Below, piece by piece: positions 7,029 to 15,763 of a DNA stretch of 64,000 nt. The number at the start of each line of letters is the position of its first letter. Within the stretch, counting starts at the first letter, position 1. Made by a program: the position numbers and the translations under genes. The notes under the pieces were generated by a model. The model searched no databases. It saw nothing but the letters and a program-made list of their open reading frames with translations, and was not told the origin of the DNA. Source of the DNA: Mermis nigrescens (Eukaryota; Nematoda; Enoplea; Mermithida; Mermithidae); contig JAVLUZ010000600.1 in NCBI GenBank assembly GCA_036768485.1, positions 247,007-311,006 of the forward strand, written 5' to 3'.

Positions 7029-10000
7029 TCAGCCGTCCTCGGCTGACGGTTGCCGACGGCTTCTAAGAAAATAGCGATGTTCTTTTTCGGGTGTGTTGAC
7101 GTCAATGTTCGTGTCATTTACAAGTTCTTCTGCGTCCATGGTCATTAGTTTCCTTGTAGGTCGTAATTTTTCTTGGGTTTCGTCGTCCGTTTCACTTATT
7201 CTTGTTTCTATTAAGAATTCTGGTCGGCTATAATATATTTTAGTGCAGTTTACATGAACAACCTGGTTGCAGCCTCCTGGAATATCGATTTTCATATTAG
7301 GGTAGTTTACATCAGTAATCTCGTATGGTCCGGTGTAAACTGGCAGTAGCTTTTTGGGTATTCCGCGACTGATGGTCTCATTTTCTAGCAAAATTAAATC
7401 ACCAACTTTACACTCTGTGTCTTTCGCTTTTATGTTCCGAGCCTCCTTATACTTTTGTTGCGAAATTTCTATTTGTTCTTGTACCTTAGTGAGTGCTTCG
7501 GAGAAATGCTTTTTGACTTCCTCCTCATAGGCCTCAAGGTCGATTAAATAGGTTGATTGAGTGTAATTTAGCATTGCGTCTATTGGAAGTTTAGGTGTTC
7601 GTCCGTACATAAGTAGAAATGGACTAAACCCTGTCGTTTCGTTGTCATGTATAATAGTGGCGAAAACTGCATATGGGAGGTGCTCATCCCAATCAGTTCG
7701 GTCCTTTTCGACGTACATCCTTATTCTGGTGATAAGGGTCTGATTCGCCCTCTCAACCTCCCCATTAGCCATTGGATGATAGGCTGTTGTAAAGACTCTA
7801 CGCGTTGTAAATAGACTTGTTATTTCTTTCATAAGCTCTGATGTAAAATCGGTACCAGGATCAGATTGCAAAATCTGTGGGGCTCCGTGGTCTGCATACG
7901 ATTTTGGTAACAAAGAGTCTAGCGATCGTTCGTGCAGTGATATTTTCTGTGGCGAATGCTTCAATGTATTTGGTAAAATAGTCTATAAACACAACAATAT
8001 ACTTATTTTCGTTTTCAGTTAGGTTTAGTGGTCCTATGCAATATACGGCAATCCTTTCAAATGGGCCGGAAGATGAAATTGGTTGAATACTGGCGGCGAT
8101 TTTCTGGCGTGTAGGTTTGTTGCGCTGGCAAATGTCGCAAGTTTTACAATATTCTGTGATTTGTTCAGACATGCCTTTCCAAAAATACTTTTTGGCAACT
8201 AGTCGTCCGGTTTTGCGTGCTCCAAAATGCCCTACAAGCTCATCGTCATGATGAATCTGAATAATTAAAGACTTTAAGATGTTTGGAATCACTACTCGTT
8301 GTGTTTCATTATCTACTTTGTAGAGAATTTCGTTTTTAATCGCAAAACCTTCCAAACATTCATTTTGTTCGAAATAGCGTTTTAATTCAGGATCTTCTTG
8401 TTGAAGGAAACCAATTCCTTTTTCGGGCTCAATAAGTTTCAGAGTGTTTTCTTCATCTATTTTTACTATATTTATTCCACAATTTCCGTCATTAACAATT
8501 TTTAGTCTGTTGTCGTCTATATCGAAGTATTTCGTTTCGTGTAAATTTGGCAAGCGAGATAAGGAATCTGCATTTTGATTTGTTACACCTTTACGTGGTA
8601 TTACTGATATTTTTATTCCACCTAATGCGAGTCCCCAACGTGCGATTCTAGCTGAGGGATTCGATTTTTCTAAAATCGATTTAACTGCTGTATGATCGGT
8701 TTCAACAGTGACCTCTTGCTGATATAGATAAGGTCGAAAGTACTTAATGAATTCGACTACTGCGAGTGTTTCTAACTCTGTTACGGAATAATTTTTCTCA
8801 GCTCGTTTCAGAGTTCGACTTGCATAAGCTATTGGGTGTTCTCGGTTATCATTTAGTATCTGAGATAAGACAGCTCCAATTCCATTGTAAGATGCATCTG
8901 TTTGTAGTGTAAACGGCCGTGTAAAATCGGGATGTGATAGAATAGGTGATTTTATTAATTTTTCTTTCAATTTTCGAAATGCATTTTCTTGCTCTTCCTT
9001 CCAAACGAAAGTTCTGTCCTTTCTAAGTAAGCGATTTAAGGGTTCAGCGATTTTCGAACAATTTTCAATAAATTTTCGATAATAAGAGATAATGCCCAAG
9101 AATGATTTTATCTCTTTAGCCTCTGTGGGACGGGCATTTCTTTTACAGCCTCGACCTTTTTTGGATCGGGTGAGAGTCCTTGCCCTGAGATTACGTACCC
9201 TAAGAATAATGTCTCTTCATCGGAAAATTTACACTTCGATAGTTTTAACTTCATGTTCGCTTTACTTAACCTTTCGAGAAGCAACTCTTATCTTTTCATC
9301 ATCTCCTGATGATCCGGCGCGAAGATCAAGATGTCGTCAAGGTAGACAAGGCAGACACTCCATTGGAGGCCAGACAGAACAACGTCCATGAGCCGGGAAA
9401 AAGATGCCGGCGCATTACACAATCCAAAAGGTAAATAGTTGAACTCGTATAGACCAACTGGTGAGTTGAACGCTGTTTTCTCTTTGTCTCCTTCCTTTAT
9501 CCCTATCGAGTAATAAGCATTTGCCCTGTCCAAGGTCGTAAAATATCTCATTCCGCTTAAAGTGTCCAAAATGTCATCAATTCTTGGCAGTGGGTAAACA
9601 TTCTTTTTCGTAATTTTATTTACGCCTCGAAAATCAATGCACATTCTATGTTTTCCATCTTTTTTTGTACCAAAACTACGTTTGTCGACCATGGGGACAT
9701 ACTAGGCCTGATTATTCCTTTATTTTCTAATTTCATAACCTCGTCTATTATAATTTCTTTCTCTGCTGTTGAAGTACGATATGGATGCTGATGTATAGGT
9801 GCGCTTTGCTCCGTGTCGATTGCATGCTCTATCAAGTCTGTTTTTCCCGAATCCATTTCATCCCTAGCGAACAAATTGGGGAAACGGGCCAGAAGGTTTA
9901 CGATTTCGTCATGTTGAACATTGGATAACTTTGGCGAGATATGTGTATTTTGGATTATCCATTGTTTTATGTCTTTCACATCCATTGTGTTCTGTGTCTC

Positions 10001-10830
10001 GGTACTTTCATTATTTGTATAGGAATCAAGATGCATGTTTATTACGCCTATTTTTGTGTTAGCGTGTAGTCGTACCTCATATGGATTCGGATTAAGTATT
10101 TGGATGGGTATTGTGCCGTTTTCTTGCACGAGACATACAGAATGAGCCAAATGAACCTGTACATCCTTGCTTGGTTTTGGGGCAAAGATTACTTCGTCAT
10201 TCGCGAGGTAATTGGGTGGCGTTTTCGCAAAAACAACTTGTACCGATCTTGGCCCTATTATTTCATCTTCGACCAGTATTATTGCGCTTCTTTTCTCTGG
10301 TGGGCTGTATTGCATTCCTACCATGGGTATAGGGATTTCTTTAAATTTAATAGTGGCTTTTTCCAGATCTAGTTCAATTTTCTTAAATCTAGATAAGAAA
10401 TTCGAGCCTAAAAGTAGGTCTGCTGCGCAATTTTCCTGTATGTAAACTAATAATGCTTCTTCTACGTCATGTGCGCTTACTGTGAGTAATGCCGATCCGA
10501 GAATAGTGATTTCACTTCCATTAGCGGCTATTAGCCGTACACATGTCTTATATATTTTGAAATTTGGTAATTTTTGCGCTATTTTCAAATCTAGCAACGA
10601 ATAGACTGCACCTGTGTCTACCATAGCTGTTGCATTTATGTAACTATTTAAAATTACATTAATATGAGCAGTTTTCTTAATTTCTGTACTTATAACTGCT
10701 ACTAATGTTCCCACGTTTTCTGTTGTATCTCGTTTCCATGTTATCTTTCCACGTCCGCTTTTTGCTTTTGGTTTTAGAAATCTTAGCATGGTTTCGCCTA
10801 AATTTTCACGCTGTGGCGTTTCAGACGACG
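7029..10830 (-). pseudogene. pol: Retroelement pol: protease, RT, RNase H, integrase
   Basis: Ty3/Gypsy-type polyprotein on the minus strand. An aspartic protease motif MVDTGA lies at about 10608-10625. RT motifs include YLPFGLCNAPASF and the catalytic YLDD (about 9336-9347). RNase H begins TDASYNGIGAVLSQ (about 8885). Integrase has an H2C2 zinc finger with CKTCDIC (about 8120-8150), the second acidic residue in SDPGTDF and the Glu in NGEVERAN, then a GPY/F-like module (PVYTGPYEI, about 7340). The first catalytic Asp of integrase, expected just before GPL, reads as Tyr (VYCIGPL, about 8035). Breaks: a 1-nt shift in an A-run near 9685, an in-frame TAA at 9288-9290, a shift near 9125 and a shift near 7905. 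The protease frame is continuous upstream with the envelope membrane anchor. Confidence 0.93.
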
Positions 10831-13715: not shown

Positions 13716-13728
13716 GTTCTTACCGGAG
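13716..13728 (-). promoter_or_regulatory. Splice donor candidate at end of gag exon 1
   Basis: On the minus strand CTCCG|GTAAGAAC is close to a consensus 5' splice site. The last exon base is 13724 and the intron begins at 13723. The gag codon is split after its first base. Confidence 0.65.
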
Positions 13729-15763
13729 AAACGTCCCCAGCGTATATATTCGCGGCGGGTATCTGCTTCGTTGGCTGACGGACGAGACGAATCCGTCACC
13801 GCCAGTGGCGACATCGGCGAATCGCGCACCACCGGGCGGCGAGGTGTGGACGGTGGGCATATGGGCGTAGTCGGCGTCTTGCGAGGCGTCGTTGGCGGCG
13901 TCGAATGACGACAATGCCATGGGCAGCGTCGGCAGCCCCCGCGGTTACGGCGAATGTGACGAACGCGATGATGGCTGCGTCGTTGGCGACGATTCGGGCG
14001 GATGTTGGCTGAAAAATCAGGGACATTGTCGGACGACGTATCGAGCGCGTTTAGGTCGTTTGGCGACCCGTACATTTGTCGAAAATGCTCTTCAACGCTT
14101 ACGGGCTCAGCATTTAGGTTGTTAAATTTACCCTCTACCCAGGGGTAAATTTGCCCGTTGAGATAACGGAACATGGGCTGCTCCGCCTTAAACTCCTGGT
14201 AGAGCCGCTCGAAATTGGCCTGTTGTAAAGCCACGTAGTCCGTGTCGGACTCAAACTCATCCGACGACGTTACTACGGGCGCCGGAGCCGGTTCTAGCGG
14301 CGCTTCTATGGCAGGCTCAGTTTCTGTTTTAAAAGGAAGGCTCATGGTATTTACACGTCCAGAATTTATGGCCCTTTGGAGTAGACCTTCGTCCTCTATG
14401 TCAGACATTTCAAAATTTTCACAATTTCTATTTATTTCATCGTCATTTTGAGTTGAAATATTACTATTTGTTGGCCTCAAATTTTCAGAAAAATGAACAT
14501 TTCGCCCACGATTTCTTTGAAAATCAGAGTTTTGGGGCTGGTCGGGTCTGGGCCTTGGGCTTGGGGTCCTAAAGCGGGTTCCATTACTCTGCATTCTCGA
14601 CTCCATATTCCTGCTGTCTGTGCTATATGAATTTAACCTTGAATTATTCGAATAATTACGATAGTTCTGATTATCGCGATTATTTAAGGTTGGTCTCCTG
14701 AATTCATAATTGCGAAAATTAGTATTTCTTTGATTATCGTTTAAATTACGATTTGTATTTCCATTCAGGACTCTATTATTAGCATGATAATTATTCGAAT
14801 TATAGCGATTACTTAGGGTGGCATTATTATTATTATTACCACTAAAATTAAAATTACGTGTTCGGTTCGTGGTGAAGCGGCGAACCGATGCCAACAAACG
14901 GCATTTGCTGGTATTGTGGTTATCCATGCGGCAGATTTCGCAGTATCTCTGGCTGCGCTCGATCATGGACTTTATGTCGTTTATCTTCCGATCCATGTTT
15001 GATTCTGGAGATAAAATTGTTAAATTATAATCAGGTTTGGTTTCAGACTGTGTAGGGTAGTCTTTAATCTGCTCACGAAAAACTTGACGTTCGGTGTATG
15101 ATGCTCGCCTAATCGCATCCGTTAGGTTTGCAAATTCTTGGTATTTTAATCCCTCGTAAATTTTAGGCAAAAGACCGCGAATGAAAATCGGTTTTATTAT
15201 ACTTTCCCGGCTATGTTCTGAAAGTTGGGGGTAAGCCGATCTTGCTAGCTTTTTCACCCTCTCAGAAAATTCCAGGACGGGCTCAGTTTTTCGCTGCTTA
15301 GCATCGTACACCATACCCTGATAAATGTCACTATCACGACCTTCTAAAAATTACGCTTTAAGTGCTTCTACTACATCGTCGAAGCTAGGATCGCGAAGTA
15401 CCTCTAAAATGTTATTTAAAGTAGCTAAACCAGTTCCAACGCAATTGGATTCTAAAAATGCGATTTTATAAGCATTATCCGCATTTGAAACACCTTGAAG
15501 AACCATATATTTTTGGAATTTTTTATTCCAGTCATGAAAAGATTCACCAAAAGCTCCAGAAAATGGCTTTGGAGGCCTTTGAGTCATTAATGCACCGAGG
15601 CGTTGAAAAGGATCCCCCACTGACCTTGATGCATTTGCGTCTGCTCTTTGTTGTATCTGTTCTTCTAAATGTGTCACTTTTCGAATTAACGGTGTTCCAA
15701 ATTCGTCAAAAGCATTTTTAAAAGCGTCTTCCATTATTTTAGGATCAAACGTCATTTTTCTAG

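What the first reader, a model, noticed from the sequence alone, without database searches (positions are those of the whole stretch)
7029..15755. LTR retroelement with gag-env-pol gene order
Minus-strand order is gag, then a signal-bearing Cys-rich envelope-like protein, then protease-RT-RNase H-integrase. Intact LTRs, a 4-bp duplication and correctly placed primer sites rule out a simple rearrangement of the provirus. Known retroviruses and errantiviruses place env after pol. I know of no described Ty3/Gypsy lineage with env between gag and pol, though I cannot search.
Basis: partly seen in the sequence, partly recalled or inferred. Interest (0 to 1): 0.88.

Follow-up and report, generated by a model that had tools for sequence, protein, structure and literature searches.

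The report
Retrotransposon with envelope inside its polyprotein
A worm genome carries virus-like jumping genes that hold their envelope protein in the middle, between the shell and enzyme parts, often in one long open frame, an order I did not find described for this group.

Summary
The unusual order is real. On the minus strand lies a Ty3/Gypsy-type LTR element: 5' LTR, gag, a variable linker (X), envelope, then protease-RT-RNase H-integrase; integrase ends 18 bp before the 3' LTR. Target duplication AATG. The envelope looks class III: Pfam Monjiviricetes_fusion, and its family profile finds herpesvirus gB in the PDB. This copy is broken (stops in gag and env, frame breaks), and two DNA transposons split its 3' LTR. 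The host assembly (524 Mb; by size probably the mermithid nematode Mermis nigrescens) gave 68 scored envelope matches of 775 candidates. I read 40: gag upstream in 28, pol downstream in 36, both in 24, reverse order in 0. Four of the 40 hold gag, env and RT in one open frame; two further relatives very probably do. Fifteen envelope families, many pairs under 40% identical, imply old descent; env dN/dS near 0.1 in four of the six pairs compared implies selection. Best reading: one Gag-Env-Pol polyprotein, with Env threaded through the membrane by an internal signal and a transmembrane segment. Expression is inferred, not shown. The most relevant paper (Chary & Hayashi 2025) was not held, so novelty stays provisional.

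The parts
17402..18668 (-). 5' LTR, 1,267 bp, TGTCAAG...GTAACA
18669..18672 (-). target-site duplication AATG, 5' side
2352..2355 (-). target-site duplication AATG, 3' side
17389..17396 (-). PBS-like TGGCGCAG, 5 nt inside the 5' LTR; tRNA not tested
16468..16736 (.). MITE-like repeat inserted in the leader
15354..15797 (-). gag N-terminal piece (open frame before the in-frame stop at 15353-15351)
   Evidence: 77% identical to L041
13584..15350 (-). gag C-terminal piece; CCHC knuckle at 14942-14901
12668..13675 (-). X: open, fast-changing linker in the Env-Pol frame; no Pfam match at E <= 0.1 as part of the 775-aa ORF
12524..12580 (-). hydrophobic, signal-peptide-like segment before Env
11273..12667 (-). 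Env ectodomain, class III-type (PF24664), up to the in-frame stop at 11272-11270
10831..11269 (-). Env stem, TM segment (10942-10886) and cytoplasmic-like tail; same frame as protease with no stop between (lower edge approximate)
10388..10660 (-). aspartic protease (gag-asp_proteas 29.1 bits, cut-off 28.2; DTG at 10618-10610)
9294..9701 (-). reverse transcriptase piece, YLDD at 9344-9333 (frame-broken from the protease piece)
8623..9003 (-). RNase H region (PF17919, PF17917)
8113..8289 (-). integrase zinc-binding domain (PF17921)
7034..7982 (-). integrase core to C-terminus, with GPY at 7331-7323; stop at 7031-7029
7011..7021 (-). polypurine-tract-like run before the 3' LTR
2356..7010 (-). 3' LTR, split by two inserted DNA transposons
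3308..3576 (.). MITE-like insertion in the 3' LTR, 8-bp duplication CTGAAGTG
3606..6711 (-). piggyBac-like unit in the 3' LTR (DDE_Tnp_1_7 in two pieces; TTAA at its edges)

Best explanation
This is one broken copy of an old, diverse lineage of Ty3/Gypsy-type LTR elements in which a class III-type envelope glycoprotein sits between the nucleocapsid end of Gag and the protease. In at least some families the element encodes one Gag-(linker)-Env-Pol polyprotein. Shown: the order, the shared open frames, the Env family, the flanking hydrophobic segments, and purifying selection on Env. Inferred: the internal hydrophobic segment before Env acts as a signal that opens the ER channel, so that Gag stays in the cytosol, the Env ectodomain is in the lumen, the TM stops transfer, and Pol is made on the cytosolic side; signal peptidase frees Env's N-terminus and the element's protease cuts Env from Pol. 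This would resemble the way flavivirus polyproteins place capsid and envelope (recalled, not tested), and would let Env, Gag and Pol meet at one membrane.
For: 40 of 40 fetched loci have env; gag upstream in 28, pol downstream in 36, both in 24, reversed in 0. Env and protease in one open frame in 19 of 40, gag and env in 7 of 40, gag, env and RT in 4 of 40 (L029, L033, L034, L036). L041, from the relative whose RT is 90% identical to the window's, holds gag, X, env and protease in one open frame across all 5,701 bases; its RT lies in the same phase in a frame of 3,027 aa; the 472 bases between were not read. L042: gag piece, env and protease in one frame, and the env and RT matches report the same frame length, 2,822 aa. 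Of 10 env-RT pairs listed in both genome searches all have env upstream of RT and 6 report identical frame lengths (most of these are the same places as fetched loci). Env lies in frames of 1,900 aa or more in 17 of 68 matches. In 29 of 40 loci the env hit lies in one open frame; of these 26 have a hydrophobic segment within 90 codons before it and 23 a TM-like segment after it. Env dN/dS 0.10-0.12 in four pairs, X 0.60 in its one pair. X stays stop-free without coding-like codon positions, as expected of a linker that must be translated. Fifteen env families at 85% identity, and env and RT distances agree (Mantel rho 0.46, 95 of 5,000 permutations as high, 9 families).
Against: No RNA or protein evidence. 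Many copies are frame-broken; gag and env share a frame in only 7 of 40 loci, no gag hit was found upstream in 12 of 40 and no pol hit downstream in 4 of 40. In L006 Env is a stand-alone frame ending soon after the TM, and in L031/L039 the env frame opens only 78 nt before the env hit with gag in another frame, so some families may express Env apart. Strong splice-like sites exist (donor 13723, acceptor 12940). dS is high (0.87-1.6) in the pairs used; a recent pair (L017-L005) gave 0.53 from few changes, and one pair was saturated. The fetched loci were the 40 best-scoring of 68 and include near-identical copies, some perhaps haplotype duplicates. The env C-terminus-plus-protease query found no homologous protein.
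Confidence: 0.65

Rival explanations
1. Alternative splicing: env lies in an intron. The full-length RNA gives Gag, a spliced RNA that skips X-Env gives Gag-Pol, and another spliced RNA gives Env.
For: Donor-like 13723 is in the top 0.2% and acceptor-like 12940 in the top 0.15% of all GT and AG sites on the window's minus strand; 13723 joins acceptor-like 10896 (top 6%) so that gag's frame runs into the protease frame (matrices recalled). iERV envs are made from spliced RNA (passage of PMC12992720).
Against: Splicing does not need X-Env to be open in frame with both gag and pol, yet X has 0 stops where 23 are expected and gag, env and RT share one frame in 4 of 40 loci and very probably in L041 and L042. 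Among several donors and acceptors some in-frame pairs arise by chance.
Confidence: 0.22
2. Env is made from its own start codon near the signal (spliced or internal initiation), ends in a fused Env-Pol, and Gag is made alone; fusion of Gag to Env in some families is secondary.
For: Env and protease share a frame in 19 of 40 loci, gag and env only in 7 of 40; in L031/L039 the env frame opens just before the signal and in L006 Env stands alone; P0009 begins with its own Met and signal-like segment.
Against: In the close relative L041 gag and env are in one frame through an 0.95 kb linker, and the linker is kept open.
Confidence: 0.2
3. A chance rearrangement or assembly artefact of an ordinary gag-pol-env provirus.
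For: The copy is broken and sits in nested repeats.
Against: Matching LTRs and AATG duplication; integrase ends 18 bp before the 3' LTR, leaving no room for a normal env; the same order in every one of the 24 of 40 loci where gag and pol were both found, over many families.
Confidence: 0.02
4. The middle protein is not an envelope but another membrane protein.
For: The fold was not shown (pLDDT 38.5); the single-sequence PDB search gave only weak hits, the best being a dehydratase at E 0.014.
Against: PF24664 in 13 of 13 members of A6; the profile of A6 matches 13 PDB sequences at E <= 0.1, 12 named glycoprotein B and one ORF8, best 5.8e-05; leader and TM in the right places.
Confidence: 0.03

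Closest known systems
Envelope-carrying Ty3/Gypsy elements (errantiviruses; Chary & Hayashi 2025)
   Same: Ty3/Gypsy-type pol with a captured fusion glycoprotein; gypsy elements with type III fusion glycoproteins are mentioned in PMC13172572 (passage).
   Different: Env between gag and pol rather than after pol (order in errantiviruses recalled; the 2025 paper was not held).
Anakin (BEL/Pao plus chuvirus glycoprotein, mosquitoes; PMC7642597, passages seen)
   Same: Captured glycoprotein of the Monjiviricetes kind in an LTR element.
   Different: BEL/Pao, not Gypsy; that paper places the env-like proteins of Roo, Tas and Cer-7 downstream of the polyprotein.
Jingchuvirales glycoproteins in arthropod genomes (PMC10084718, passages seen)
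   Same: Same broad glycoprotein family; Gypsy fragments lie near some.
   Different: The authors state no clear evidence of capture by Gypsy.
Cer1 of C. elegans (PMC10309623, passages seen)
   Same: Nematode Gypsy element whose gRNA has no stop between gag and pol.
   Different: Its extra frame lies after pol and is a nuclear export factor, not an envelope.
Romanomermis culicivorax protein P0008
   Same: Env homologue (35% over 42% of the query) in a protein its source names a gag-domain protein.
   Different: Gene model only; Pfam found no family in it; pol position unknown.

Membership tests
Ty3/Gypsy (Metaviridae) | pol order protease-RT-RNase H-integrase | tested here: met
Ty3/Gypsy (Metaviridae) | Ty3-type capsid | tested here: inconclusive
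   L041 29.6 bits against cut-off 29.1; L036 25.3, below it; the window's own gag pieces gave no capsid match
Ty3/Gypsy (Metaviridae) | closest solved pol is Ty3 | tested here: met
   RT-RH-IN piece against 7q5b, E 5.8e-49
Ty3/Gypsy (Metaviridae) | RT phylogeny against named clades | not tested
   no named reference set used
Ty3/Gypsy (Metaviridae) | TG..CA LTRs and 4-6 bp target duplication | tested here: met
Errantivirus | env downstream of pol | tested here: not met
Errantivirus (iERV) | F-type (baculovirus-like) Env | tested here: not met
   Env pieces match PF24664 and gB-type models; no F-type family listed; definition from a passage of PMC12992720
Anakin / BEL-Pao | BEL/Pao pol | tested here: inconclusive
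   best solved match is Ty3; no BEL/Pao model was tested by name
Class III fusion glycoproteins | sequence-profile relation to gB or rhabdo/Monjiviricetes G | tested here: met
Class III fusion glycoproteins | class III fold | tested here: inconclusive
   model mean pLDDT 38.5
Troyka | CG..CG termini and 3-bp duplication | tested here: not met
   TG..CA and 4 bp; definition from PMC12440569

The most novel reading that the evidence does not exclude
A lineage of envelope-bearing retroelements encodes Gag, a class III fusogen and Pol as one polyprotein threaded through the ER membrane by an internal signal and a TM, so that Env rather than a Gag-Pol fusion carries Pol to the budding site: a virion-building plan not known for any reverse-transcribing element.
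Probability: 0.5. Interest if true: 0.9.

Novelty: new variant of a known kind. Interest (0 to 1): 0.8.

Why it matters
Retroviruses and the envelope-bearing Gypsy elements that I know of keep env after pol and express it apart from Gag-Pol (partly recalled). A diverse, selected lineage with env in the middle, and in several families in one frame with gag and pol, means that a fusogen can be built into the Gag-Pol polyprotein. It makes testable how such an element places one protein on both sides of a membrane, how it sets Gag, Env and Pol ratios, and whether infectious retroelements arose by more than one genomic route. The host assembly has hundreds of candidate matches (775 at first look) in many families, so comparative work is possible at once.

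Tried and rejected
Tried, led nowhere: homologue search with the Env C-terminus plus protease piece (none at E <= 0.001); Env relatives in viral contigs, in prokaryote genome contigs and in phages: none; Rfam and tRNA scans of the window: nothing; AlphaFold on 4 sequences, mean pLDDT 38.5, not used for fold claims. A codon-usage score used one wrong frame in its training set (Env from 12534) and is not used; one row (Xb) was out of frame and was replaced.

Rejected: Troyka (wrong ends and duplication). A programmed frameshift between gag and env as a feature of the lineage: in L041 gag and env are in one frame, so the break looks specific to this copy. A gag-pol-env copy at C192: it is a truncated fragment of another family. 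Dropped rows: three loci (L001, L004, L021) had no single long env hit and were left out of the family count. In one search I compared 68 env rows with 78 of the 150 RT rows, those on contigs that also hold an env row.
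Full report
What is there. On the minus strand of the window lies one LTR element. The 5' LTR is 18668-17402 and the 3' LTR 7010-2356; where they align (952 and 299 columns) they differ by 3+2 mismatches and 1 gap, so the copy is young. Flanks carry AATG on both sides. A TGGCGCAG lies 5 nt inside the 5' LTR and a purine run just before the 3' LTR.

Order of domains. Pfam on the separate open pieces gives aspartic protease (29.1 bits, cut-off 28.2), RVT_1, RNase H and integrase zinc-binding domain, all over cut-off; the integrase core model rve_3 was below its cut-off (14.6 against 26.5). RT has YLDD, integrase a GPY motif, gag a CCHC knuckle. The Env piece matches PF24664 at 56.6 bits (cut-off 27). 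Gag is upstream of Env, protease downstream, and integrase stops 18 bp before the 3' LTR. This copy is broken by stops in gag (15353-15351) and env (11272-11270) and by frame breaks.

Continuity. Env's TM runs on into protease with no stop. The 1 kb between gag and Env (X) has no stop in the Env frame from 13675 to 12501, against 23.4 +/- 4.6 in simulation and 25 and 28 in the other two frames over 13700-12501; 380 open codons against a maximum of 200 in 5,000 simulations. X lacks the codon-position pattern of the other genes (G at position 1: 0.14 against 0.23-0.30). It is open, but its sequence is little constrained.

Other copies. The window lies in an assembly of 523,963,438 bases in 860 contigs. 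M. nigrescens is reported as 524 Mb in 867 scaffolds (PMC10989877, outline with abstract and passages), so it is the probable host; this is inference. The search with PF24664 scored 68 of 775 candidates, all 68 over the cut-off; 14 control genomes gave none. I fetched stretches of about 7 kb around 40 of the 68, the best-scoring ones. With the window's own pieces as queries: env in 40 of 40, gag upstream in 28, pol downstream in 36, both in 24, gag downstream in 0, pol upstream in 0. Env and protease share one open frame in 19 of 40, gag and env in 7 of 40, gag, env and RT in 4 of 40. Two more relatives were read in part: L041 (RT 90% identical to the window's) holds gag, X, env and protease in one open frame over its whole 5.7 kb, and L042 a gag piece, env and protease over its whole 4.2 kb; their RTs lie in frames of 3,027 and 2,822 aa. 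Six distinct places thus hold, or very probably hold, gag-env-RT in one frame, in four of the 15 families. Of the 10 env-RT pairs listed in both genome searches, all have env first; one further pair with env after RT (C192) is a truncated env fragment of another family.

Age and selection. Thirty-nine loci plus the window form 15 Env families at 85% identity, with pairs down to 33%. Env and RT distances agree (rho 0.46; 95 of 5,000 permutations as high; 9 families), which fits shared descent rather than repeated capture, though not strongly. Env dN/dS is 0.10-0.12 in four pairs with dS 0.87-1.6; a very recent pair gave 0.53 from few changes and one pair was saturated; gag 0.22-0.33, tail plus protease 0.21, protease-RT 0.15, X 0.60. 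Outside this genome, a Romanomermis protein (P0008) joins a region its source calls gag to an Env region, but Pfam finds neither in it, so it is a lead only. Two metagenome proteins (P0006, P0007) and P0009 are further Env relatives without context.

What Env is. All 13 members of alignment A6 match PF24664, 10 of 13 the bornavirus G model, 5 of 13 the herpes gB model. The A6 profile finds 13 PDB sequences at E <= 0.1, best 5.8e-05; 12 are named glycoprotein B and one ORF8. The single window sequence alone found gB only at E 0.15-0.32, behind an unrelated dehydratase at 0.014. The predicted model was too poor to use. Of 29 loci with env in one open frame, 26 have a hydrophobic segment just before it and 23 a TM-like segment after it.

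How it probably works. A single polyprotein with Env in the middle can be made if the internal hydrophobic segment acts as a signal: Gag in the cytosol, Env in the lumen, TM, then Pol in the cytosol, cut by signal peptidase and by the element's protease. Shown: order, frames, hydrophobic segments, selection. Inferred: translation, topology, cuts. The main rivals are splicing out of Env and separate initiation at Env; splice-like sites exist, and a few families (L006, L031/L039) have Env frames that start or end by themselves.

Against what is known. Passages of PMC7642597 place known env-like genes of BEL/Pao elements after pol; passages of PMC10084718 report no clear capture of such glycoproteins by Gypsy; [quoted passage not shown] So a class III Env in Gypsy is not itself new; the position and the shared frame are what I could not find. 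Six phrase forms of the order gave no paper, and other searches listed none that by title or abstract describes it. The library holds open-licence papers only, and Chary & Hayashi 2025 was not held, so novelty is provisional.

Noticed in passing
window 3308-3576, 652-912, 4160-4427, 16468-16736, 23101-23354: A MITE-like repeat of about 270 bp with C-rich runs, at least five copies in the first 30 kb; the copy in the 3' LTR has an 8-bp duplication.
   Followed up: partly
window 3606-6711: piggyBac-like transposon (DDE_Tnp_1_7 in two open pieces) inside the 3' LTR, itself holding a copy of the MITE.
   Followed up: partly
window 31476-31817: A second reverse transcriptase fragment (RVT_1, E 8e-09), class not determined.
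   Followed up: no
window 28809-29732: Dense direct and inverted repeats (arms of 62-208 nt).
   Followed up: no
L006:3299-5098: An Env frame that stands alone, with its own Met and a stop soon after the TM, unlike the fused families.
   Followed up: partly
L043:2370-3001 (C192): 5'-truncated env fragment 99.5% identical to L007, downstream of another family's integrase.
   Followed up: yes
L002/L003, L009/L010, L033/L034 and others: Near-identical env loci on different contigs or twice on one; some may be haplotype duplicates.
   Followed up: no
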